From: Apteryx mantelli
Taxonomy: Eukaryota > Chordata > Aves > Apterygiformes > Apterygidae
Direction: 5' to 3'
Assembly: GCF_036417845.1 (NCBI RefSeq)
Contig: NC_089978.1
Span: 163,305,962 to 163,369,961, forward strand
DNA length: 64,000 nt
Shown: positions 494 through 64,000 of the stretch, piece after piece
Layout: each line of letters starts with the position of its first letter
How positions within the stretch are numbered: the stretch's first letter is position 1
Program-made: the position numbers and the translations under genes
The notes under the pieces: model-generated
What the model was told of the DNA's origin: nothing
The model's database searches: none
The model's input: the letters and a program-made list of their open reading frames with translations, nothing else

Positions 494-3400
494 AGTTACT
501 AGAGAGTGACCGAAGTGTTGATGACGTGGGGCTGGCATCTGGCAGGACACAGCGAGAGAGAAAACACTCTTACAAGGATCTACTGCAAGAGGAGGAGGAG
601 ATAGCAGCTCAGGTCAGGAAGCTCTCAGAGAAAAGGTTGAAAGTGTAAGGATGTGTATAAAGTTACTGATGGGATTGGATGAGATGGGATGGGAGGGTTT
701 CTTGGTTTTGTCTATGTAGAAACTCCTGTAGAAGATAGCAAGAGCAGCTAATTAAGTGTCCTGTATTGTTCAGTAGCTTTTCTGGGAAAAAGGAGGGGGC
801 CAATCCCAGGTACAACTGATTCTGATTTTTCTGGCCTCAGAAAATAGGATAGTTGGGTCTTATCCTAGCCTTGGTGCAGAACCTTGCAAATCATGAGATA
901 GCATGAATGACTTTACACACAGAAATAAGATTTTTAGAATTTACAATTGTATAAATAGCCAGCAAAGGATGAATAAAATATTAACTGATGCACTGTTGTC
1001 TTCCTGATTCTGCAGACAGCCTGAAACGATAGCTCTTGAGAGGTATGAACTTGCCCTATTCATCTCCTTGGGGCCTTAACACTGAAATCATGTAGCGACA
1101 ACTTAAGTTTCTTCAAAACTTTCCTCTTTGAGCTAAAATTTCTGCTGTCAGCTCAAAGGTGACTATCTTGTGATTGTTTTTTTAATTTTTTAAATGTGAG
1201 AAGAAAAGTTCTAGTTTAAATGAAAATCTTCTTCTTCTACCATGCAGATGGAATTCTGCAGAGGAGCTTCATTTTCAGACTGTAAATTGGTCAAGCAACA
1301 AATTATAATTGGGTGACGTGAGATATGGAGGTCAATTTTCTGGCCCATCATTTTACTTGTCACCTCCCTATGCCTCCTTTCACTTCTTTCTCTTCTTCGG
1401 CATATTAAATATGAACTACTCACCTTCATTTTCAAGGCTTGACAGCCTATGCATGCTTAGTTATCTCTTAGCCATAGTAATATGTAGACTTTTGTCGTTG
1501 ATCAACTCATCAGCTGATCTCCAAATAATGGCTTCCATTGCCCATTTCTTAACACTTTCAAACGTGCTATTCCACGTTTTCTTCTGTATTGCTCCTTTCA
1601 TTTGGGAGGAGCTCCCTGTAGAGATGCCTTCTTTCAGTTTCCTTCTTATACTCCTGTTTTGCTACAATGTCTACAGAAAGCTTGATGCCAGTGAGGTGGC
1701 TGATGTGCTGAAACCAGTGCTGACTAATACTGTTTTTTATACTCTCCTGGCTATCCGTATGTTGTTTGTTGTCTCTTGCCTTATACCTACACTTTGGGCT
1801 CCTGGGGACAAAGAATGTTTGCATAGCATCTGGAATAAGGATCCTGGTCCATGACTAGGGTTCCTTGGCATTACAGTAGAACCAATAACTCTGATAACTC
1901 TTATGAATTATTTTCTATGTCAATAGTCCATGTGAATCTCTTATAATTTCCCTCCTGTTTGTTCAGCAACTTCTCTGCTCTTGTTCTAGGACAGCAAACT
2001 TGTCTTTCTGGGGACAGAACCTCACAAAAAGAAGCGAAAGCACTCATCCGATGAGTTCAGCTACAGAGGTAAGATGGTGATCAGGCAGGGGAAGGGGCTA
2101 ACTGGTCATGACTTTGAGGAAAGGGAGCTCATCAACTAATGTCATCAAGTTTTGTGGTCAGCACTTTCAGGAGAGAAAGTACACCAATCTGTCTTAGGAC
2201 AACTAATCAGAAACCTGATCAGAATACTGCACCAGACAGCAAAAGATAAGGATTGATATTTCAGATTTTAGCTTAACAAGTTGCATTGTTGGGGATATAC
2301 AGCTTTCATCCCTCTTTTCATTATCAAGTTGTAACTAATGGAAGCCTTTTTGACTTTTGTATTTATTTCTTTCCGTGTTGTATTACAAGCTATGATTTCA
2401 TTTGTAGATGGTATTTATTTCTCTGAATTTGTAGAAATACAATGTGTCAAGGCATAAGAGGAACGCTTTTGGGTTCAGTTTAAATACCAAGACATTATTC
2501 TCATAGTTAATAAATTGGCCAGAAAATGACAATTCAGTTCATAATGGCTTAGAAGGTTTAAGATTTATTTTTGTCCTGATGCAAAAAGAAAGCCACGTCT
2601 TTGCAATATTTTTACAAATTTTATCAAAAATCTGTTTTCAGAATGAAAAAGCTTGTGTTTTCAATTCATTGGTCTCTCCTTGACTAAAAGTAACAAGAAA
2701 ACTTTGCACTTGAGATGTAATATTTCAGTTTCAAAAGATATATTCTCAGAAAAATATGCTATTTCATGATAGAAAATTAAGTCAGACAAAACTTCAGGAA
2801 CTTGCTTAGTCTGTCTTTCTTCCTTAAATTGTTTGAATTGTATCAGCAAAAATGCACTGAGGTGGTAACAAGTTTAAGAGATCTTGTCCTTAAGCCGGAA
2901 TGCAGATCAGTTAGCTGTAATCATAACTATTGCAGGATTCCCACTTCACTTCTTAAGCTAGTGTAATGCTCTTTAAGGGAAGCATCTTGATGTGCATTTC
3001 TGTTGATCTTTTTCAGATCTTTCGCCTTTGGATCTACCATCAAAGAAGAAGAAAAAAGCAGTTTCCAGCCCACCCTCTGCTGATACAACCATGGATCTAC
3101 TCAAAGCTATCACCTCACCTTTGGCCACTAGCTCAAAGTCCTCAAAGAAAACCTCTGAAAAATCATCATCTCATTCTTCCTCTGGCCATTCTGAAAGCAA
3201 AAAGGAGCACCACAAGAAGAAGTTGAGCGGAAGCAGTGGGGAGCACTCACTGGACGATGGCAGCTACCACAAATCTAAAAAAATGAAACCTCTCTATGTG
3301 AACACAGAGACACTTACTCTCCGTGAACCTGATGGCTTGAAGATGAAGCTCATCCTTTCACCAAAGGAGAAAGGAAGCAGTGCAGCAGATGATGAGTCTT

Positions 3401-6400
3401 TTTCCTACTCTTCACCACCAGCAGCTGCAAAGAAATCTTCAAAGAAATCAGCTCGAGATGAGCAAGGCTCATTCCTTCTGGGTCATGAACTGCAGAGCTT
3501 CCTGAAGTCAGCCCGGAAGAAGCACAAGCCACCTCCAGACCCTCATCCACCTTCCGAGGGGATTGGTGCTGACACCTCCCTTTTTTCAGAGGGCCATGGG
3601 AGTGAATATGATGTTTCAGGTCTAGAAGCACCACCAGAATCTGGTTCATCTTCCGGTGGGGAGTTGGAGGCTGGAGAGCTAGTGATAGATGACTCCTACC
3701 GGGAAATCAAGAAGAAGAAGAAGTCAAAAAAAAGTAAGAAAAAAAAAGACAAGGAGAAACACAGAGAGAAGAAGCACTCTAAATCTAAAAAGAGTTCTGG
3801 ACACACTGTGGCAGCAGCAGAAGCAACAGTGTCACCACCACCTCCTACCAGTACTCCCTATGTTCTTCCTTCACCTCCTCCTGTTTTTCACTCAGATGGA
3901 CAGGGCGAGAAGAAGAGGAGAAAGGAAGACAAGGAGAAGGAAAAAGCTGAGAAATGGGAGAAGGAGAAGGAAAAGGAGAAGGAAAAGGAGAAGGAAAAGG
4001 AGAAGGAGAAGGAAAAGGAGAAGGAAAAGGAGAAGGAAAGAGAAAGAGAAAGAGAAAAAGAAAAAGTAAGGAAAAATAGGAGGGAAGATAGAAATTGGGA
4101 TACCCAGAGACTTTGAAGTTGGGTAATGATAAATTAGGCTCTCAGTGTTGCAGAAGTTATCAAGGATTTCATTACCATTATTTCAGAACCTAGTTTTTCA
4201 AAGCGGTAGATTGCAGAAACCACAAAGTTTGGAGAGTGTATGACAGTCTGATGGTAGAAGTGATACAATTTATTAGGCTAACTGCTGGAGCTGAAAATGT
4301 TTAACAGATTTTTAGGGCATATGTGCACAAAAGTTTGTCTGATTTCTTTCAGCAATAACAATTGGCCTAGTAAGAACTACTACCTCTTCATACTTTGTTT
4401 TGTCTTCTGTTTAAAGATATTTCTAACTTTCACTGTTGTGAAAATAATTTTATTGTGTCAAGTGCCCTATCCATTACAGAGGCATGTTATATTAAAACAG
4501 AGGATAACTAATATCAGCATTAATGATTTTGTTGCAGGATGTTTGGCAAAAATGTTTCAGCTATTTTGATTTATTTTTGTAACAAAAGTAATATAAATCA
4601 TTATTCTTTGTAGTATAGGACAGTCTTTAGCTGACAGAGGTCCTTTGAAAAGATTATACTTAATTTGCTTGGTATAGATTATGCCACAACTATGTCATTT
4701 TCTAAGGTAATTCGTCATAGCTATTGCCAGGCAGGAGTTTGGACAAGGCTAGCAGTGATCTAGTCCATCATGATAGTTTCTGTAAAAAGGAATTGAGCTC
4801 TGCCCTGAAGTGTGAAGATATTTTCCCATTTATTCCTGTATTAAAATGAAGTTCTAATTCTACAGACTACCACATTCCCAATTTTGTTCTGTACTTATCA
4901 GGATTTCATGGTTAACTTCCAAAGGTATGAGTAGGAAAAATTGTAGCTAGCATATGAATGAGTTTCCAGATTACATAGTTCTAGCTGTGTAAGTGTATAA
5001 ATGTGGAAAAAACAGTTTCTGTATGTCTATGTAGAAAAGAGTTGCTTTGTGTCAGGAAATGGGCAGAAGTAGCCCAAGTCTGTTCAACTCTGCTCTATTC
5101 TCTTTGGTAAGTTTTCTCTGATCACAGCTTGGCAGCTGCTTATGCCTCTGCTATCACTATACTTCTACTATCTACTTTCCTGCTATGAAATGTTTTGTAG
5201 GCATGCAAGGAATGGAACAGAACATTAGAATGAGGACTGAAATCATTTAACAGATCTATGATAGGTAGTGTGAATAGTATAACAGATTTTTTTTAATTTT
5301 AAGTTTTAAAACTGAGATATATTAACGGAGTTATATGTTGATCCTGGATTTAGAATAGCAAGTTGTGAGTTATGAATGAAATGCGTTGATAGAGTTGTTG
5401 CAAGATAAGCCTTATATTAAGACTGGTTCTGGATGGTTCCTGTGCTTTCATAACTGCTAAAACACTGCTTCTTTAGGTTCCTGATTTAAGCACAGTATCT
5501 TTCTTTAAGACTTCTATAAATGCCAATTTATTATTAATTCAAGTAGATATAATTGTAATTAAAAATATTTGTTTCCTTTTCTTCTTCTGACTAGCCAAAG
5601 AAGAAGAACATGTCTGCCTATCAAGTATTCTGTAAGGAATATCGTACAACTATTGTGTCTGAACACCCTGGGATAGGTGAGATAATAGTCTCTCCTGGTC
5701 TTCTGTTGATTATACATCTGTCAGATTATTTATCAGGACATACCTTCTCTGCATCATACCAAACTCTTAATTTTGATGGAGTGCGAAGAATGCCAATTTT
5801 CTTTGAATAAGAGACAGCAAAGAGGATAGGAGTTGATTTCATGATTTGATTTCATTGTATTTTAACCAAGCTGTGAATCTGGTTAAAAAATTTGCCAGCC
5901 CTCCCTTTCATTTACTTGTAGACCTGTCTCTGCAGGTTCATTGCATCACTTTTCCAAATATACATATGATCTTATATTCCCTATATCAGCTTTTTTCATT
6001 TTAGTCAGTAATGAAACAACACACTGGAAATAATTTCCTAGGTAGACAGAGAGTTCTTGATGTAGAACAGTTTGTTTCCTAAATGTGTATGCATGGGCCA
6101 ATTATTCCACTGTCAACATTCACATAAATTTCATAAGTTCTGTGCTTGATTTTATTATTTCATGCATATTAAACTTTTTTCTTCTCTTCTGCCAGATTTT
6201 GGAGAGCTGAGCAAAAAACTGGCAGAAGTGTGGAAGCAGCTACCTGAGAAGGATAAACTGGTAAGTCTGTGTGAGATGTTTTTGTAAAATGATTTCTCTT
6301 AACTAGGTGCTTAGGTCAGAACATGCTGGCAGCATTGCCACCATGCCTTACAAAATGTTTCCTCTCTCCCTAAAGTAGAGAAAAATGGGTAATCTTACCT

Positions 6401-38451: not shown

Positions 38452-38970
38452 TTGGGTACTTCTCTGAAGTGCCTGTACACAAATGCATGCAACAGGGGGA
38501 ATAAACAAGAGGAATTAGAGATATGTGCGCAGTTGCAGGTCTATGATCTTGTTGGGATCACGGAGACATGGTGGGATAGCTCACATGACTGGTATGCTGC
38601 AAAGGATGGACACGGGCTTTTTAGGAAGGACAGGCCAGGGCAGTGAGGAGGGGAAGTCTTCCTTTCTGTGAGAGAGCAACAGGAATGTATGGAGCTCTGC
38701 CTAGAGGTGGATGATGCATTGACTGAGAGCTTATGGGTAAGGATTAAGGGGCAGACCTATATGGGCAACATTGTTGTGGGTGTTTGCTATAGGCCACCTG
38801 ATCAGGAAGAAGTAGATGAGGCCTTCAACAGACAGCTAGAAGTAGCCCCACATTCACAGGCCCTAGTCAACAAGGCTGACTTAAGCACCCCAGTATCTGC
38901 GGGAGGGACAATGCAGCAGGGCACACACAGTCCTGAAGGTTCCTGGAGACCATTGATGACAACTTCCTGA
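38452..38970 (+). pseudogene. CR1 endonuclease domain remnant
   Basis: Two adjoining open pieces (38452-38646 and 38668-38970) with the apurinic-type endonuclease motifs TETWWDSSHDW and YRPPDQ. A TGA at about 38644 and the loss of the segment with the catalytic Asp/His motifs show that it is inactive. Confidence 0.85.
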
Positions 38971-39914
38971 TACAGGTGATAGAAGAGCCAACAAGGAGAG
39001 GTGCTCTGTTGGACCTCACTCATATTTACAAACAAGGAAGGGCTGGTTGCGGATGTGAAGGTCATGGGCAATCTTGGATGCAGTGGCCATGAGATGGTGG
39101 AGTTCAGGATCCTGAGAGGAGGGAACAGAGCAAAAAGCAGGCTAACAGCCCTGGACTTCAGGAGAGCATACTTTGGCCTCTTCAGGGACATGCTTGGAAG
39201 AATCCCATGGGATACAGCCCAAAAGGGAAGAGGTATCCAAGAAAGCTGGTTGATATTCAAGGATCTCCTCCTCCAGACTCAAAAATGGTCCATCCCAATG
39301 AGCAAGAAGTCCAGCAGAGGTTGTAGGAGGCCTGCATGGATGAACAAGGAGCTCCTGGCAAAACTCAAACGTCAGAAGGAAGTATAAAGAAGGTGGAAGC
39401 AGGGACAGCTAAACTGGGAGGAATATAGGGATGTTGTCCGAGCATGCAGGGATGGGGCTGGGAAGGCAAAGTCCATCTAGCTCTTAATCTGGTAAGGGAC
39501 ATCAAGGACAACAAGAAAGGCTTTTATAAGTAAGTGCATCAGTAACAAAAGAAAGACTAGGGGAAATGTGGGCCCACTGCTGAATGGGGCAGGGACCCTG
39601 GTGACAAAGGAGATGGAAAAAGCTGAGGTACTGAATGCTTTCTTTGCCCCAGTCTTTACTGGTGAGACTGGCCTTCAAGTATCCCAAGCCCAGAGACAAG
39701 GGAGAAAGTCTGGAGACAGGAATTCTTTTCCTTGGTGGGGGAGGATCACATTAAGGATCACTTAAGCAAACTAGACATACACAAGTCCATGGGCCCTGAT
39801 GGGATGCACCCACAAGTGCTGAGGGAGCTGGCTGATGTCCAGTAATGCCACTCTCAATCATCTCTGAAAGGTAATGGTGATCAGGAGAGCTGCCTGAGGA
39901 CTGGCAGAAATCAA

Positions 39915-40583
39915 ATGTCACTCCTGCCTTCAAAGGGCAAGAAGAGGGACCCAGGGAACTGTGGGCCAGTCAGCCTCACCTTGATCCCTGGAAAGGTGAT
40001 GGAGCAACCCATCCTGGAAACCATTTCCAGGCACATGAAGGACAAGAAGGTGATCAGGAGTAGTCAGCATGGATTTACAAAGGGGAAATCATGCTTAACG
40101 AACCTGATAGCCTTCTATGATGGAATGCCTGGCTGGGTAGATGAGGGGAGAGCAGTGGATGTTGTCTACCTTGACTTCAATAAGGCTTTTGACACTGTCT
40201 CCCGTAACATCCTCATAGGCAAGCTCAGGAAGTACAGGCTAGGTGAGCAGACAGTGAGGTGGATTGAGAACTGGCTGAATGGCAGAGCTCAGAGGGTTGT
40301 GATCAGTGATACAACGTCTAGTTGTAGACCTGTAGCTAGCGGTGTACCCCAGGTGTCAATACTAGGTCCAATCCTGTTCAACTTATTCATCAGTGACCTG
40401 GATAATGGGACAGAGTGCATCCGCAGCAAGTTTGCTGATGATACAAAATGGGGTGGACAACCATCAATTAGATGGTTGTGTTGCCATTCAGGGGGACCAC
40501 AACGGGCTAGAGAGATGGGCAGAGAGGAACCTCATGAGGTTCAACAAAGGGAAGTGAAGAGTCCTGTACCTCAGGAGCAATAA
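39915..40583 (+). pseudogene. CR1 reverse transcriptase domain remnant
   Basis: A 222-codon open piece covers the RT fingers and palm: STRHMK-like lead, HGFTKGKSCLTNLIAFYD, YLDFNKAFDTVS (first catalytic Asp), SGVPQVSILGPILFNLFI and FADDTKW (catalytic Asp pair). The frame is lost shortly after FADDTKW, and the preceding part (39001-39765) is in other frames. Confidence 0.88.
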
Positions 40584-41314
40584 CCCCTTGCACCAGTACA
40601 GGCTGCAGGCTGACTTGCTGGAAAGCAGCTTTGCAGAAAAGGACTTGGGGTCATTGTGGACAAGTCGACTGTGAGCCAGCAATGTGCCCTTGTGGCAAAG
40701 AAGGCTGATGGCATCCTGGGCTGCATTAGGAAGAGCATTGCCAGCAGGTCGAGGGAGGTGATCCTTCTCCTCTACTCAGCCCTGCTGAGGCCATACCTTG
40801 TGTACTGTGTCCAGTTCTGGGCTCCCCAGTACAAGAGAGACTATGGAGCTACTGGAACAAGTCCAGCAAAGGGCTACTAAGATGATTAAGGGACTGGAGC
40901 ATCTCTCTCATGAGGAAAGGCTGAGAGAACTGGGACTATTTTGCAGAGAGAAGAGAAGAAGCAAGGGAGGATCTTATCAATATGTATAAATATCTGAAGG
41001 AAGAGTGTAAAGAAGATGGAGCCAGACTCTTTTCAATGGTGTCCAGTGACAGGACAAGAAGCAATGGGTACAAACTGAAACCCAGGGAGTTCCATCTGAT
41101 TATGAGCAAAAAAACCCTATTGTACTGTGAGGGTGACTGAGCGCTGGAACAGATTGCCCAGAGAGGCTGTGAAGTCTCCATCCTTGGAGATGTTCAGAAG
41201 CTATCTGGATAGGGTCCTGGGCAACGTGCTCTAGGTGACCCTGCTTGAGCAGGGGGATTGGGCTAGATGATCTCTAGAGGTCCCTTCCAACCTCAACCAT
41301 TCTGTGATTCTGTG

Positions 41315-42763
41315 ACATACTTAGAGTAATTCAATGCAAATGACTCAAGTTTGTAATACATTTATCAAAAATCAAAGATCCACCTGAGCTTTGTTGGTCC
41401 TTTTGACTTATGGCTATGAGCAAATTTTAGAGAATTCTTTCTCGTAGCTACAGCTCATATGGCCGGTATCACATCATATTAGCTTTAGAGTAGCTAGATA
41501 AAATAACCATGAACCAAATTTCAATTTAAGTAATTAGGCTTGGCCTGTAATAGAAGTTCAGAACATGGCTCAAACTGAGGTCTCTGAAACAAAAGCAGGA
41601 TTCCTTAACAGCTCTGCCACTATAGCCCTTCTTATGCACTTACAGCAAGTATTAATAATTTATTGCCTATTTATAAATTATTTACAAGTATCCTCTTAAT
41701 ATAAAGTGCAACATTTGTGATTATCATGAATTTCATATACATTTTTGAACTCCAGATTGGGCACTTAGAGAAAAGAGTAAGTATACAAATAATAAAATGG
41801 CTATTATCTGCAAGCCACAGTCTATGAATACAGTTTGCACGTTCTTGAAGAGAACACAAGGGAATGTATTTCATTGCAACACAGCGATTGAATAACCATT
41901 GAAACAGACTGTCTGTACACATTACCTCTGCAGACACTGGTGGTGCAGTGCTGTCCCTGAACTGTATGTGTTTTGCAGACAGATCCTTCCCCAGTGAACC
42001 AGGGGCCAAAGGATGTTTCTTTGTGACCCAGTGCCATCACCTGATGCTACACATCCAGTCTATGATGTAAATAGCTGTGATAGTAAATAATCTGACAATT
42101 TGCCTAATATTTTATATGGTATTAGCTCAACAGAATCCGGAAAAGTAGCATCAACATACAAGTTACTAATATTTTGAAAATATGCTGATTTTTTGCTTTG
42201 AATCTCTTTGCTACAAAACTAAAAATTAGGGCACTCTGTAAATTCCATGGCCAATTTAAACTATTAGAATCTAATTAGACTCTGCTTAATCACCTTAAAA
42301 TGTTGAACAAATAAGCATATTCTGAACATCTGTCATATCATATTTGAGCCAGATGTATTACAAGCTGGAAGCCACTGAGGAACCCTGTGTAATTTTTCCT
42401 CCAGTAGTTATAGGATGCAACATTACAGGGACTGAATGTCTCTAACATACATATACACACACATATATATATGTATGTGTGCGTGTGTAAATATATATAC
42501 ATATATAGAACCATTTATATTAACAGAGACTTCCTTTTTCTGGAAATGTTCTGAGTTGGAAAACAAATTACTTATAAGCTTTCAGTCTTGCATATAAAGC
42601 TTGGAGCTTACATGTAAAGCTTAGGAGGCAAGTTTCTTGCAGAAAACATGAGTTTCTGAAATTATATATAGTCTTTAAAGAGATAATTCATTAGACATCA
42701 ATCAAGAGATGTGTCAGTCACTCAGAGTTGTGTCAATTGTTTTTCAATTATGCTCTTTTAAAG
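41315..42763. other. Start of AT-rich segment, no secure gene
   Basis: Base composition changes sharply to AT-rich right after the CR1 octamers. The segment 41756-41776 (IGHLEKR, phase 0, ACTCCAG before and GTAAGT after) could be a 21-base microexon of the tail gene that follows. No transmembrane or extracellular exon is visible. Confidence 0.4.
42445..42508. repeat. TA/TG/CA alternating repeat, partly self-complementary
   Basis: Runs of ATACACACACATATATATAT and GTATGTGTGCGTGTG face each other, so the tract can form a hairpin. Simple repeat. Confidence 0.85.
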
Positions 42764-57027: not shown

Positions 57028-57390
57028 GCCTCTAGCCTTTCTCTTTTGCACAACCCTAACCCTAACGCTAATGCTATACCGTTTTTCAGGGCAATACTGC
57101 CACAAAGACCCCTATGTGTGGCCCAGATGAGAAACTCCTCACAGGAACCATCTCTGGGCAGCGCACACTTTCCTCTGGCAGCCCCTTTCCATACCCATGA
57201 CAATGGCGCCTCTAGGCTTTCTCTTTCTCCCAGCCCTAACCCTAATCCTAACCCAAACGCTAATGGTAAAGGTTTGCTGGGCCAGTGCTGAGCCGAAGAC
57301 CCCCATGTGTGGCCCAGACAAGAAACTCCTCACACGAACCATCTGCCCTCAGGAGGCACCCATGACTATCAACATTGACCATTCCCAATA
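57028..57390 (+). repeat. Tandem pair of ~180-bp units with telomere-like hexamers
   Basis: Two copies begin with GCCTCTAG at 57028 and 57208. Each runs through 'ctttctctt', CCCTAA hexamers (57054-57075: CCCTAACCCTAACGCTAATG; 57234-57265: CCCTAACCCTAATCCTAACC), 'atgtgtggcccaga', 'gaaactcctcaca' and 'gaaccatct'. The hexamers are the vertebrate telomere C-strand motif with degenerate members. Confidence 0.85.
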
Positions 57391-57419
57391 TTGAGAGGCC
57401 TCCATGACTATGGATTACA

Positions 57420-60400
57420 GCACGTAGCATTAGGGAATGATATCTGTCCACATCGATCCCTGTCCATAGGCTTCAATACCACCCGATCTCAACAGGCATC
57501 TCCATTTTGGGGTTTCAGGCCGATTTTGCTATCAGTAGGTATCGAACGATATCGACACCAATACCTCTCACTATGCAGGGGCACCCATGCCCATCACATT
57601 CCATACCTATCGATAAGGATCAATATCGATGGGGATCGATGACTATCCATCCCCATTGATATCTATCCAACACAATAGTCAGTGATACCTCTCAATCTCC
57701 ACAGGCATCTATTTTCTTTGGTCTCAGGATGATGTTGTTCTTGGCAGGCATCAAACGATCTATCCCCATCAATATTGTTCCCTACTGATAGGTCTGGCTA
57801 CCGCTCGATCTTGAGAGACATGCATAGCTTTCAGTTGGTGGCTGATGTTGCTCTTGGTAGGCACCAATGACTGTCAATATTGACCGTTCTCGAAGTTGAG
57901 TGGACTTGATGACTATGTATTGCAATAAGTATTGTTAGGGCCTGTCTAATTCCATACCTATCGTATGGGAGAGGTATTGACGTCTATTAATAGGGCTTGA
58001 TATCAATATAGATTGATTCCTATTGATAGGCATCAACACCTCTCGATCTTGAGAGGAAAGTTTATCTTTTGGTCTAGGGCCGACTGTCTATCAGTTAGCA
58101 TTGAACGATATCAACATTGATACGTTTTGATATTGAGGGTCATTGATGCCTGTTGAGTTCCATACCTATCAATAGGAACCGATATCAATTTGTATCAATA
58201 ACTGTCAATCTCTGTTGATATTGGTCCCTGTCAATAGGCAACGATATCTCTCAATCTCGACAGACATGTATAGCTTTCCACTTCGGGCCCATTTTACTCT
58301 TGGGAAGCTTTGAATAATATTGACATTGATATCTCTCAATACTGAGTGGCATCAACTCCTTTCAAATTCCATACCTATGGATAGGGATGGATATGGAAAT
58401 TGAAGGGCATCCATGCCTATCGATATCGAGAGATATCAGTGTTGATGGGCGTCAACGCCCACCAAACACAAAATCGCTCTGAGTGTGAAACCTAGAGTCG
58501 CCAGATGAGATCAAGAGGTCTCGATGGGTATTGGTAAGGATCGATATCCATAGGTATCAATACCTATTGATATCAATCCCTATTGATACGTATAGAAGTT
58601 GAAGGGCACACATGCCTTGTCAGTATGGAGAAGTATTGATGTCATTAGGTGTCAATGCCTACCGAGAGCATCATCGGCCTGAGACCAAAAGCTTTGGATG
58701 CCTCTCGAGATTGAGAGGTATTGATGCCTATCAATAGGGATCAATAGGTTTTTACATTTATCCCTTTTGATTCCATCAATAGGTATGGAAATTGAAGGGC
58801 ATCCATGCCTGTCGATATTGAGACATATCAATCTCGAAAGTTGTTGATGCCTTGCCGCTTCAAGAGTGAAAGCTGGAGGTGCTTCTCGAGATTTAGAGGT
58901 AATGATGCCTGTCCATAAGGTCTGATATCAATAGTTATTGTTTCCTAGCGATACGTACAGAAATTGGTACTCCTCAAGGCCTCTTGGTATTGAGAACGGT
59001 CAATGACCATCAGTGTTGATAGTCATCAGTACATACCGAGAGCAAAATGAGTCCAAGAGCAAAAGCTAGAGATTCCTGTTGAGATCGAGAGATATCGATC
59101 CCTGTCAACAGGTATGCAAATTGAAAGGTATCCATCCCTGTTGATATCAAGAGGTATCAGTGTCGATAGTCATCAATGCCTACTGAGAGCAAAATCAGTT
59201 TGAGACTGAAAGCTAGAGATGCCTCTCAAAATCAAGAAGTAATGATTCCTGTCGATAAGGATCAATATCTATAGATATAATTTCCTGGAATATGTATGGA
59301 AATCAGTACTCCTCAATGCCTCTCAATATAGGGAACGGTCAATGTTGATAGTCATCAGTGCCTACCAATAGTAAAATCCATCCTAGTGAGAAAGCTAGAG
59401 ATACCAGCTACAACTATCGATACCTATTGCTATTAATCCCTTTTGATAGGTTTAGAAATTGATAGGCATTGATGTCTGTCGAGATCAAGAGGGATCGATG
59501 GGTATCAATAGGCATGGATGTCAATAGATGTGGTTCTCTAGCAATATGTATGGAAAAAGGTACTCCCCGAGGCTTCTCAATATGGAGAATGGTCAATGTT
59601 GATAGTCAACGGTGCCTACCAAAAGCAGAATCAGTCCAAGAGCAAAAACTAGAGAGGCCTGTCGAGATCAAGAGGTATGGATGCCTGCTGATTTGGATCA
59701 ATATCAATAGGTACAAATAGTTACTGATACCTATCAATATCAATCCTTATCGATAGGTATGGAAATCGAAGGATATCCATGCCTGTCCATATAGAGAGGT
59801 ACTGATGTCAATAGTCATCCACACCTACCAAGAGCAGTAGTGGTCCAAAAGAGAAAGCTAGAGATGCCGGTTGAGATTGAGAGGTAATGATGCCTATCAG
59901 TAAGGATTGATATCTATAGCGATACATATTGAATTCCATAGTCATCGAGGTCTCTCGATATTGAGAACGGTCTGAGACCAAAGGCACAAGAGGTCTGTTG
60001 AGATGGAGAGGTATTGATGGCTATCAGCAAGGATGGCTATTGATAGTTCTCAGTAAGTATCAACACAGAGTGATATCAATGCCCATCGATAGGTATAGAA
60101 ATTGATCATGACCGATGCTTGCTGAGATGCAGAGGTATCGCTGGGTAATGATAGGCATTGACATTGATGGATGTTGTTCCCTAGCGATACGTGTGGAAAT
60201 CAATACTCATGAAGGCCCCTTCATCTTGAGAATGGTCAATGTTGACAGTCGTCAGTGCCTACCAAGAGCAACATCGGCCACTGACCGAAAGCTATGCATG
60301 CCTCTCAAGATGGAGCAGTAGCCAGGCCTATTGATAGGGATCGATATCAATGGGGATCGATAGTTAACACGACCTATCGATATCAATCCGTGTCAATACA

Positions 60401-60520
60401 TATGGAAATTGATACTCTTCGAGGCCTCTTAATATCAAGAACAATCAATATCAATAGGCATCTATACCTACCAAAAGCAAAATCAGCCTGAGACCAAAAT
60501 CTTTGGATACCTCTCAAGAT
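57420..60520. repeat. Degenerate satellite built on TATCGATA/GATATC words, with inverted arms
   Basis: Landmark phrases recur at irregular 110-300 base steps, many near 160-220. On the + reading these are 'gagcaaaatc', 'gagaccaaaagct', 'gatgcctctcgagat', 'gagaggtattgatgcc' and 'aggtatggaaatt'. From 57420 to about 58383 the phrases appear as reverse complements ('cctctcaatct', 'ggccgattttgct', 'ttccatacctat'); from 58392 on they are in the forward sense. The turn-point carries 'ttcaaattccatacc' against 'tatggaaattgaa'. Variants such as TATCGATA, TATCAATA and TATTGATA differ mostly at CpG. No open frame of note. Confidence 0.85.
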
Positions 60521-61515
60521 CATAGAATTCCAGAATCACAGAATGGTTGAGGCTGGAAGGGACCTCTAGAGATCATCTAGCCCAATCCCCCTGCTCAAGC
60601 AGGGTCACCTAGAGCACGTTGCCCAGGACCCTATCCAGATAGCTTCTGAACATCTCCAAGGATGGAGACTTCACAGACTCTCTGGGCAATCTGTTCCAGC
60701 GCTCAGTCACCCTCACAGTACAATAGGGTTTTTTTGCTCATAATCAGATGGAACTCCCTGGGTTTCAGTTTGTACCCATTGCTTCTTGTCCTGTCACTGG
60801 ACACCATTGAAAAGAGTCTGGCTCCATCTTCTTTACACTCTTCCTTCAGATATTTATACATATTGATAAGATCCTCCCTTGCTTCTTCTCTTCTCTCTGC
60901 AAAATAGTCCCAGTTCTCTCAGCCTTTCCTCATGAGAGAGATGCTCCAGTCCCTTAATCATCTTAGTAGCCCTTTGCTGGACTTGTTCCAGTAGCTCCAT
61001 AGTCTCTCTTGTACTGGGGAGCCCAGAACTGGACACAGTACACAAGGTATGGCCTCAGCAGGGCTGAGTAGAGGAGAAGGATCACCTCCCTCAACCTGCT
61101 GGCAATGCTCTTCCTAATGCAGCCCAGGATGCCATCAGCCTTCTTTGCCACAAGGGCACATTGCTGGCTCACAGTCAACTTCTTGTCCACCAGGACTCCC
61201 AGGTCTTCCTTCCTAGCCTTCCTGGCCCCATCCCTGCATATTCAGACAAGATCCCTGTATTCCTCCCCGGTTATCTGTCCCTGCTTCCACCTCCTGCACA
61301 CTTCCTTCTTCTGTTTGAGTTTTGACAGGAGCTCCCTGTTCATTCATGCAGGTCTCCTGCCTCCTTTCCCAGACTTCCTGCTTGTTGGGATGGACCGTTC
61401 TTGAGCTTGGAGGAGGTGATCCTTGACTATCAACCAGCTGTCCTGGAGTCCTCTTCCTTCTAGGGCCCTAGCCCATGGGATTCTTCCAAGCAGGTTCCCG
61501 AAGAGAATCCTGAAA
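60521..61515 (-). mobile_element. CR1 LINE copy 2, internally deleted, inserted in the satellite
   Basis: Reverse-strand CR1 with its 3' octamer end (CACAGAAT) at about 60537-60544. From 60537 to about 61180 it matches copy 1 (40668-41314) with only a handful of differences. Beyond that it jumps to a part equal to 39160-39475 of copy 1, so about 1.15 kb including the RT catalytic region is missing, and this part is clearly more diverged. Satellite sequence lies on both sides, so the element sits inside the array. Confidence 0.9.
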
Positions 61516-61665
61516 GGCATCTATAGCTTTTGGTCTTGGGCAGATTTTGTTATCGGTAGACATTGATGCCTATCAACAGTGATATCTCTCAATATGAACA
61601 GGCATTGATGCCTGTCAATTTCCATACCTATTGATAGGGATCAATATCGATAGGTATCCACAAAT
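61513..61665 (-). repeat. Satellite resumes, inverted orientation
   Basis: 'aggcatctatagcttttggt', 'gggcagattttgttatc', 'gcctgtcaatttccatacct' and 'gatcaatatcgataggtatc' are the satellite phrases in reverse-complement sense compared with 58.4-60.5 kb. The array ends near 61665. Confidence 0.8.
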
Positions 61666-64000
61666 TCTCTGTGGCACAGCTGCCCCCCCTACCCAGATAC
61701 AAATTGAAAATCTGCTGTGAGAGCAGAGCTTGCAACCAAGGGCTGTGTTCTGTGAGTCTGGCTAATAGAGACACTCATAACATAGGAAGTTAAAGCCCCT
61801 TAGGGGATATTTCACTGTAAACCAATTGAGCAGCAGAGGTTACTTAAACTTCTACTTCTACTGCTACAAATGCAGAACAAGGGTAAGTACTTCCTGAGAA
61901 ACAGAACTCTGCACTGAGACATTAGGGTCTCACAGCCTCTGCAGCTTCCGTCTTGCAAGTTTTGGTCAAAGAACAGAGAGCAATGGGAAAAGACAAGAGG
62001 GCAGCACACTGAGCTTTCCTTCCAGAGTAACAGCTGCCCACAAGAGAGGAAGCAAGAGCAGAAGAATTATGGAGTCCAGGCTAATGGGTTTTGCACTTGT
62101 ATCACCAGAATGCCATCCAGAGAAGAGGGCCTGATGCCAAAATCCTCTCGCTGGCCCCTGGGTTTGTGCTCCCCTGTTCCACAGGCAAGGGCAGGCTTTT
62201 AGTGCACAGTCAGCATTTGTGAAGGATACCAGTCTATTCATATGATAAGGGCTGACCATGTTTTGAATGCTGCAACATGCCACAGTGGATGCTTAGAGCT
62301 CTTGGTGCCTTTGACTCTCTGGGTGTACTGCCTATGTCTTTCCCTGAAAGCAAAACAAGAATAGCAGGCACTCAACTAAACTCTCACTCCACAGGACAGC
62401 CAGTGGCATGCAAACAGCCCAAAATCTCAGGGTAAAGGGAGAAACACATAGGTTGTGGCCCTGGGAAAGGCAAGTGATGACTAAGGTCCATACTTCTCAA
62501 CTCCATTCTTACCTTGAGGAGCCCCTGAAGGATTGAAGAGTGAAGCTGAGCCCAGGAAAGGACCTGCTTGCCTATCTAATAAGGAAAAGGTTGGCCCCAA
62601 AACACAAGCATCAGCTGGCCACCCTGTGACGCCATCTCCAAATTCATACCCAGAGCATATGGAGAACAAGCTCCTTCCTGCTGCCTCTGCAGTATGCTGA
62701 GCCCACCTCAGGGTAAGGGCCTCTTCTCCACCCTGTTAGTTCCTTGTTTTTTCCCTCCTGAAACAGCCAACAAGAGAGCTGGCATGCAAAGCACAGGAGT
62801 GAAATTTTCCTGAGGAAGACCTGAAGGTAGAGGAATTTGCTTGCTACTACCTTTGTCAGGGGGCTAACAGGTGGGAATAGTTTTTGGTCACTGCCAAACT
62901 AGAGCCAGTTTGAAGTGGTGACCAACAAGTGAAAATTCAGAGTCCTGCTCATAGCTTTCTGGGCTAACATGTCTCCTCCCAGTTGTGTAGTGATCTGCAC
63001 ATTGTGACTCATTTAACTTTTGACCAGTCAATGCAAAGATTTATCTTAGAAAGATTATAGTTCTTTTTTCAACTGACTGAATAGCATGATAAATGAGGGG
63101 AGAATCTTTCCAAGCCCATATAAATATTGTCATACTTGTTATAGATTATATCAGTAATATCTTAAATAATTTTGAGAGATTTCTTTTGAAGAGGAGCTTA
63201 AAAAACCTGCCAAGTCTGCAAGGGATTGTTTTAAGCAGAGGTCAGATATTTTGCATTGGCAACAGCTACTTTATGGCAATGAAAAAATAAAGTGACAGTA
63301 TTATAAATAATTTCTTTAAATGCTTTTTCCTTTTTTAAAGTGTTTTCTAATGTTCAGTTGTGGCGTTGTTGTTTTTTTTTTAATAATGAAACTTACTTGT
63401 TTTTGACCACCAGAGGGCTGCAGTCACTTGCACACTCATAGCATGAGCTCTGCAAATTGGAAAGGAAAACCTGCTTTGCAGTGACCTGCTTACCAGGCTA
63501 TGCAATCAAAGGAAACAAAACCCCCAAATTCTTCCCTCCTTCTAGGTATTACACTGCAACCATTAGCCTGATACAGACGCACACGGTGACCACTTCAGGT
63601 CATGTATACACTCATTGAACCTGCATATAGGCACCATACCTTCTGCAGGAGAGCTGACTGTCAGCCCAGGCCTCACGGAGAGGCCCCAAGCACTCCCTGC
63701 AGCCTGAGACCTGTAGAGCTGCATCTACTGTCAGAGGGTCGGTCTGGGTCCAAGCCTCTGACACAGCTGATGCAGCGACTCCAACAGCTACTGGGGAATG
63801 TGCTCTGTGGTGTGTCATGACCATACCTGAGGAAGCGTACACTGCTGGGATTGGAAATGAAGGTGCCTTCTTGCGCCCTTCTGCGCTAACTGCTGTGCAA
63901 ACTGCTGCGCAAACTGCTGCATCTGTTTGCTGCCTCTGTTAGCATGTCTACGCACTTGGTAACACTCAGGGGATTTGTCTTTCACTGACCTGCCTGCTCT
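61666..64000. other. Unique-looking flank, no gene recognised
   Basis: Ordinary base composition returns. Open frames such as 61966-62283 (minus, with a Leu-rich stretch) and 63602-63820 lack start, splice or family support. Confidence 0.5.
63883..63921 (+). repeat. Short 12-bp tandem repeat
   Basis: About three units of a GCGCAAACTGCT-like 12-mer (gcgctaactgct, gtgcaaactgct, gcgcaaactgct). Confidence 0.8.

What the first reader, a model, noticed from the sequence alone, without database searches (positions are those of the whole stretch)
57420..61665. Palindromically folded satellite with a CR1 at one of its orientation switches
The same landmark phrases run in reverse sense at 57.42-58.38 kb, forward at 58.39-60.52 kb, and reverse again after the CR1 at 61.51-61.66 kb. 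The turn at 58383 is a local inverted repeat, and the second turn coincides with the CR1. Satellites normally run head-to-tail; alternating arms suggest fold-back replication or repeated inversions. I know of no named avian satellite with this TATCGATA/GATATC core.
Basis: partly seen in the sequence, partly recalled or inferred. Interest (0 to 1): 0.75.

Follow-up and report, generated by a model that had tools for sequence, protein, structure and literature searches.

The report
Kiwi satellite with flipped segments
In a kiwi chromosome, an old, palindrome-rich tandem repeat changes direction twice, once at a hairpin-like point and once at a jumping element; the same repeat recurs across the genome and changes direction in some other places too.

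Summary
A strand-specific profile finds 22 copies or fragments of a unit ("A", 183 or 209 bp): 7 reverse at 57343-58393, 14 forward at 58373-60521, then CR1 at 60522-61506, then 1 reverse at 61507-61646. Three shuffles give no such matches. The window is kiwi: 264 residues identical to Apteryx owenii HMGXB4.

A recurs as short, decayed arrays in 38 places, this one included (capped list), and its consensus is full of palindromes (9 strong dyads against 0.09 in shuffles). Both orientations occur in 8 of 20 loci read, clearly in 5, and in 0 of 10 shorter stretches. Four direct head-to-head turns, one weak, lie at the palindromic unit boundary. A companion unit, B, with CCCTAA repeats, lies beside A in 8 of these 30.

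Best reading: repeated fold-back or inversion at the satellite's own palindromes, long ago; copying by fold-back is not proved. CR1 sits at the second turn; in L015 a CR1 entered A without flipping it. The CR1's 3' part was later overwritten by gene conversion with an inverted CR1 about 19 kb away. Closest kind: Tribolium macro-dyad satellites.

The parts
57030..57345 (+). two copies of the companion unit B (~180 bp, contains CCCTAA repeats), abutting the A array
   Evidence: B forms long arrays elsewhere in the genome
57343..58393 (-). A satellite, reverse arm, 7 units or fragments
58358..58406 (.). turn 1, head-to-head: imperfect stem 58358-58373 / 58392-58406, loop 18 nt
58373..60521 (+). 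A satellite, forward arm, 14 units or fragments
60522..61506 (-). CR1 LINE copy without the stretch matching the reverse-transcriptase part of its partner, at turn 2 (tail-to-tail)
   Evidence: satellite arms end at unit coordinates 141 and 140 on its two sides
60531..61184 (-). part of this CR1 that differs from 40663-41312 at 4 of 650 aligned bases (gene-conversion tract; limits set by me from the alignment)
61507..61658 (-). A satellite, reverse arm, 1 truncated unit
38500..41312 (+). partner CR1 (RVT_1 domain in the frame at 39846-40580); its 3' part matches the CR1 at turn 2; 5' limit not determined

Best explanation
The stretch is an old fragment of a dispersed kiwi satellite family (A) whose unit is rich in short palindromes and comes in two lengths, 183 and 209 bp. 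Shown: the two direction changes, the nearly equal unit coordinates on the two sides of turn 2, and direction changes at other loci. Inferred: the palindromic unit boundary forms hairpins or cruciforms, and replication template-switching, or repair of a break capped by such a hairpin, turned the array around there, more than once and in different places. Also inferred: the CR1 entered exactly at, or together with, the second turn. Shown by the identity pattern: the CR1's 3' part was later converted by, or converted, an inverted CR1 about 19 kb away. No function is claimed; this is a mechanism of origin.
For: Array and turns. Palindromes: 9 dyad centres with at least 9 of 12 pairs against 0.09 on average in shuffles, 0 of 500 shuffles reaching 9; consensus fold z -8.4, array windows mean z -2.1 (n=16) against +0.3 for 30 windows elsewhere. 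Turn 2 at unit coordinates 141|140. Recurrence: 8 of 20 loci contain both orientations, 5 of 20 (L010/11, L012, L019, L021, window) with units above 70 bits on both sides. The four direct head-to-head turns (window, L012, L021, L023; the forward side of L023 weak, 35 bits) all switch just 5' of the box GGTATGGAAAT or its variants, with different spacers. Units differ by about 30%, so this is not a library or assembly chimera. CR1 alone need not flip the array: in L015 a CR1 sits between same-orientation units with TACAG on both sides, read by eye.
Against: Mirror-paired units are not clearly more alike; the turn-2 mirror partner ranks 5th of 17. The mirror register scores best (650.5), but another register reaches 634. 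Dyads are so dense that a random point lies within 3 nt of one about a third of the time (my estimate). At turn 1 the two profile alignments overlap by 21 nt in a palindromic stretch, so its coordinates (about 11|12) are certain only to within some 20 positions, and matches near the profile's ends are biased by where it starts. In three of the eight loci with both orientations (L018, L020, L023) one side is weak (16-35 bits). The 20 loci were the best hits, not a random sample; 12 of the 20 show one orientation only, and 10 further short stretches show no switch, nor do the five copies of the 1,031-bp block that I read.
Confidence: 0.55

Rival explanations
1. Plain inversion: a head-to-tail array of A was inverted in pieces by recombination between oppositely oriented or palindromic units, with no fold-back copying.
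For: Same-orientation and opposite-orientation units are about equally alike (69.1% and 68.6%, 76 pairs each, permutation p 0.22), as expected if flipping moved existing units.
Against: A single balanced inversion in an in-phase array would leave matching unit coordinates at both breakpoints; here they are about 11|12 and 141|140. The array has truncated units, so later deletions could also explain this.
Confidence: 0.3
2. CR1-made turn: target-primed insertion of the CR1 bridged two ends in inverted orientation, creating turn 2 in one step, as described for L1 in tumours.
For: Arms end within one unit position of each other at the CR1. L1-bridged fold-back inversions are described in PMC7058536 (passages).
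Against: Mirror partner ranks 5th of 17; CR1 in L015 inserted without flipping. In the other seven loci with both orientations no match to the CR1 of 38501-41330 lies between opposite A blocks; but in L019 one such gap holds repeat C, which from recall could be a CR1 5' part (not confirmed).
Confidence: 0.2
3. Fold-back transposon: the forward array, a core and a reverse array are the two subrepeat-built inverted ends of one mobile element.
For: In L010/L011 two B arrays of about 1.3 kb are each flanked by A arrays of opposite orientation.
Against: Array ends fall at many unit coordinates; no shared ends or target duplications noticed by eye at the 8 loci printed (no systematic test); the cores differ (CR1, B, repeat C, a 650-bp stretch without match in the other loci read); 12 of 20 loci carry one orientation only.
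Confidence: 0.05
4. Assembly or library artefact.
For: Repeats are prone to misassembly (general knowledge).
Against: Units of the opposite arms differ by about 30%; a chimeric fold-back would be nearly identical. Switches occur at other loci too.
Confidence: 0.03

Closest known systems
Tribolium madens TmSat1/TmSat2 macro-dyad satellites (PMC13081366; abstract and passages)
   Same: Short inverted repeats within units, unit orientation changes within arrays, preferred inversion sites.
   Different: Those occupy multi-megabase, likely (peri)centromeric regions and their main TmSat1 inversion-site subunits are 98-99% alike; here the arrays read are short, dispersed and decayed, and the four direct turns share position but show no clear shared spacer.
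L1-mediated fold-back inversion in tumours (PMC7058536; passages)
   Same: A LINE lies at the centre of an inverted junction.
   Different: Here a germline CR1, arms strongly diverged, order of events unknown.
Emu satellitome, 24 DnoSat families (PMC11036779; passages)
   Same: Palaeognath satellites with units near 200 bp (median 214 bp).
   Different: No sequence comparison was made; identity with any DnoSat family is untested.

Membership tests
Satellite DNA | tandem units of common origin | tested here: met
   units of 183 and 209 bp in tandem
Satellite DNA | long homogenised arrays | tested here: inconclusive
   A arrays read run about 0.2-3 kb without interruption and 113 near-complete units are 24% from consensus on average (low-scoring units left out); but searches were capped and skip very common words, so long A arrays could be missed. 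B does form long regular arrays
Macro-dyad satellite (Tribolium type) | orientation changes within arrays | tested here: met
   8 of 20 loci, 5 strong; 0 of 10 further short stretches
Macro-dyad satellite (Tribolium type) | conserved sequence at the inversion site | tested here: inconclusive
   four head-to-head turns share position; pairwise scores are higher in forward than in reverse sense in 4 of 6 pairs, mostly by small margins, and spacers differ by eye
Macro-dyad satellite (Tribolium type) | (peri)centromeric location | not testable with these tools
   no centromere map; places found are scattered along 13 contigs
Fold-back transposon | fixed termini | tested here: not met
   array ends fall at many unit coordinates
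Fold-back transposon | target-site duplication | tested here: inconclusive
   flanks of 8 loci printed and looked at by eye only
CR1 LINE (element at 60522-61506) | homology to CR1 with octamer-like 3' tail | tested here: met
   matches the partner copy, which carries RVT_1; the name CR1 and its ATTCTRTG tail are recalled, no repeat library was searched

The most novel reading that the evidence does not exclude
A is a satellite whose own palindromic boundary is a recurrent reversal point in the germline, and it helped seed large inverted amplification: a 1,031-bp block of A units, 95-99% identical, sits in at least 40 listed places on 20 contigs, in both orientations, with 7 of 20 listed neighbour intervals at 96-116 kb. 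No direction change was seen inside the five copies of the block that I read, so the link is conjecture.
Probability: 0.15. Interest if true: 0.7.

Novelty: new member of a known kind. Interest (0 to 1): 0.42.

Why it matters
Direction changes inside tandem arrays are hard to explain, and the clearest report that I saw concerns huge, likely centromeric beetle arrays. A small, dispersed, old family in a bird, with several apparently independent changes at one unit position, gives a countable set of events for testing whether palindromes within the unit set the breakpoints. The CR1 at a turn here, beside a CR1 in L015 that did not flip the array, is a natural comparison.

Tried and rejected
rDNA spacer: the high-copy A block on C12, C14, C23, C373 and C376 sits in GC-rich DNA, but the 40 listed 5.8S matches lie on contigs C69, C85, C86 and C157 (only 40 of 28,070 first-look candidates scored, so this does not exclude others), and Rfam found nothing in the five stretches. 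I hold it unsupported. Inversion between the two CR1 copies as the cause of turn 2: it would carry the array away from the CR1 rather than flip it in place (reasoning). Protein trace of the satellite in other species: 5 candidates, none at E of 1 or less. One 22-base pattern in prokaryote contigs: no match. RNA role: no Rfam match in the window. Other catalogue evidence could not be had.

The first profile mixed both strands and was discarded. One search was a script error (file name), repeated. Eight of the 38 places were not read at all (C1:153.7, C7:13.0, C15:10.0, C3:26.0, C1:176.9, C7:33.0, C44:46.1, C3:16.6 Mb).

Full report
What is in the window. The window is bird DNA: an open frame at 3007-4116 encodes part of HMGXB4. 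From one shared motif, 264 consecutive residues are identical to the Apteryx owenii protein P0025, while the runs with ostrich (P0001) and two tinamous (P0003, P0008) break after 27, 24 and 13 residues; beyond that run the kiwi protein lacks part of the frame, so overall identity is 82%. The window lies at 163.3 Mb of a 222.9-Mb contig in a 1.50-Gb assembly.

The array. A profile built from oriented units finds 7 reverse units or fragments (57343-58393), 14 forward (58373-60521) and 1 reverse (61507-61646). Direct and inverted matches are abundant; three shuffles give none. No A or B unit was found in window bases 1-57000. Units share 56-81% identity and differ by 23.5% from the window consensus. 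CpG is kept at 0.55 of expectation against 0.19 for the window, and at nine sites picked for holding mainly CG, CA or TG these stand at 41, 50 and 39, which fits an ancestral unit rich in CpG that has been decaying.

The unit. Across loci the unit comes in two lengths, 183 and 209 bp, differing in the linker; 26 short and 19 long complete units were aligned. The window consensus has nine strong dyads where shuffles average 0.09, and it folds with z -8.4.

The turns. Turn 1 is head-to-head with an imperfect 15-16-nt stem and an 18-nt loop. Turn 2 is tail-to-tail around the CR1; left and right arms end at unit coordinates 141 and 140. If breakpoints were random on a 209-bp unit, agreement within 10 positions would occur about once in ten for each turn; this is my estimate, not a tool result. 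At turn 1 the two alignments overlap in a palindromic stretch, so the agreement there (about 11|12) is loose.

Other loci. One search gave 121 matches from 40 scored of 199 candidates, in 38 places on 13 contigs, this one included. I fetched the 19 best-ranked other places (20 stretches; L010 and L011 overlap), and these with the window are the 20 loci of my counts. Eight hold both orientations of A: L010/11, L012, L018, L019, L020, L021, L023 and the window; in five of these (L010/11, L012, L019, L021, window) both sides have units above 70 bits. Twelve show one orientation. Ten of the remaining 18 places, read as short stretches (1.0-1.9 kb), show no switch; eight were not read. One shuffled copy of each locus gave no A or B hits. 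Direct head-to-head turns occur in the window, L012, L021 and L023 (L023 weak on one side). In all four the switch lies just 5' of GGTATGGAAAT or a variant of it; the spacers differ: 18 nt, a GC-rich stretch, degenerate linker, and about 100 nt of other sequence. Pairwise alignment of the four regions scores higher in forward than reverse sense in 4 of 6 pairs, mostly by small margins. I read them as separate events, but common descent is not excluded.

Companion unit B. The two copies at 57030-57345 belong to a ~180-186-bp unit with several CCCTAA repeats. B touches A or lies within about 50 bp of it in 6 of the 20 loci (window, L010/11, L020, L021, L024, L027) and 2 of the 10 short ones (L033, L038), in both relative orientations. 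None of nine stretches read in or at the edge of B arrays (L039-L047) held an A unit.

The CR1. The copy at 60522-61506 lacks the stretch that matches the reverse-transcriptase part of its partner. Its 5' part is 82.8% identical to 39178-39467 (290 bases). Its 3' part aligns to 40642-41312 at 98.4%, and within limits that I set from the alignment (40663-41312) at 4 mismatches in 650 bases (Fisher p 1e-22 against the 5' part). The reading frames of both copies are broken alike within that part, judged by eye, so the likeness is better explained by gene conversion after decay than by two fresh insertions. In L015 a CR1 lies between A units of one orientation with TACAG on both sides: insertion alone need not flip the array.

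A high-copy relative. A 1,031-bp block of A units (L051:1600-2630) has 40 listed matches at 95-100% on 20 contigs, the query's own place included (40 of 323 candidates scored), in both orientations; 7 of 20 neighbour intervals that I computed are 96-116 kb. Five copies were read: one orientation of A in each, in DNA of 58-63% G+C.

Mechanism. The satellite's own palindromes are the best candidates for the turn points. Against fold-back copying: mirror pairs average 70.2% against 67.8% for all reverse-forward pairs (SD 4.2, n=65), and the turn-2 partner ranks 5th of 17. After so much decay this test has little power. I therefore hold fold-back and plain inversion fairly close together, and leave the order of CR1 and turn 2 open.

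Literature. The closest described kind is the Tribolium macro-dyad satellite (PMC13081366, abstract and passages). For LINE-bridged inverted junctions I saw passages of PMC7058536. For palaeognath and chicken satellites I saw passages of PMC11036779 and PMC4992247. That the family is unnamed is not established: one search found none of six consensus 14-mers in a paper on satellites, the listings of searches showed no title on a kiwi satellite, and no repeat library was at hand.

Noticed in passing
window 40663-41312 (+) and 60531-61184 (-): Two CR1 copies in inverted orientation about 19 kb apart share a 650-base part with 4 mismatches while their 5' parts are 82.8% identical: a gene-conversion tract, and a possible substrate for a 19-kb inversion.
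   Followed up: partly
L040, L041, L043-L045 (C3:68.73-68.84 Mb, C6:19.54-19.55 Mb): Long regular arrays of a ~186-bp satellite with about two to four CCCTAA repeats per unit, in one orientation in each of these five stretches.
   Followed up: partly
L048-L052; C12, C14, C17, C19, C21, C23, C25 and 13 further contigs: A 1,031-bp block of A units, listed copies 95-99% identical to the query copy, 40 listed places (40 of 323 candidates scored), both orientations, 7 of 20 listed intervals at 96-116 kb; perhaps a ~100-kb amplified unit.
   Followed up: partly
L015:4791-5025: CR1 inserted in an A array without change of orientation, flanked by TACAG.
   Followed up: yes
window 63632-63941; L019:5440-6363; L024:1556-2469; L027:3047-3606; L023:5945-6263: A dispersed repeat of up to about 0.9 kb near A arrays, with an ORF relic whose five protein matches are unnamed.
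   Followed up: partly
contigs C69, C85, C86, C157: 5.8S rRNA genes, spaced about 15 kb apart in many of the listed cases: probably rDNA arrays of this assembly (capped list).
   Followed up: no
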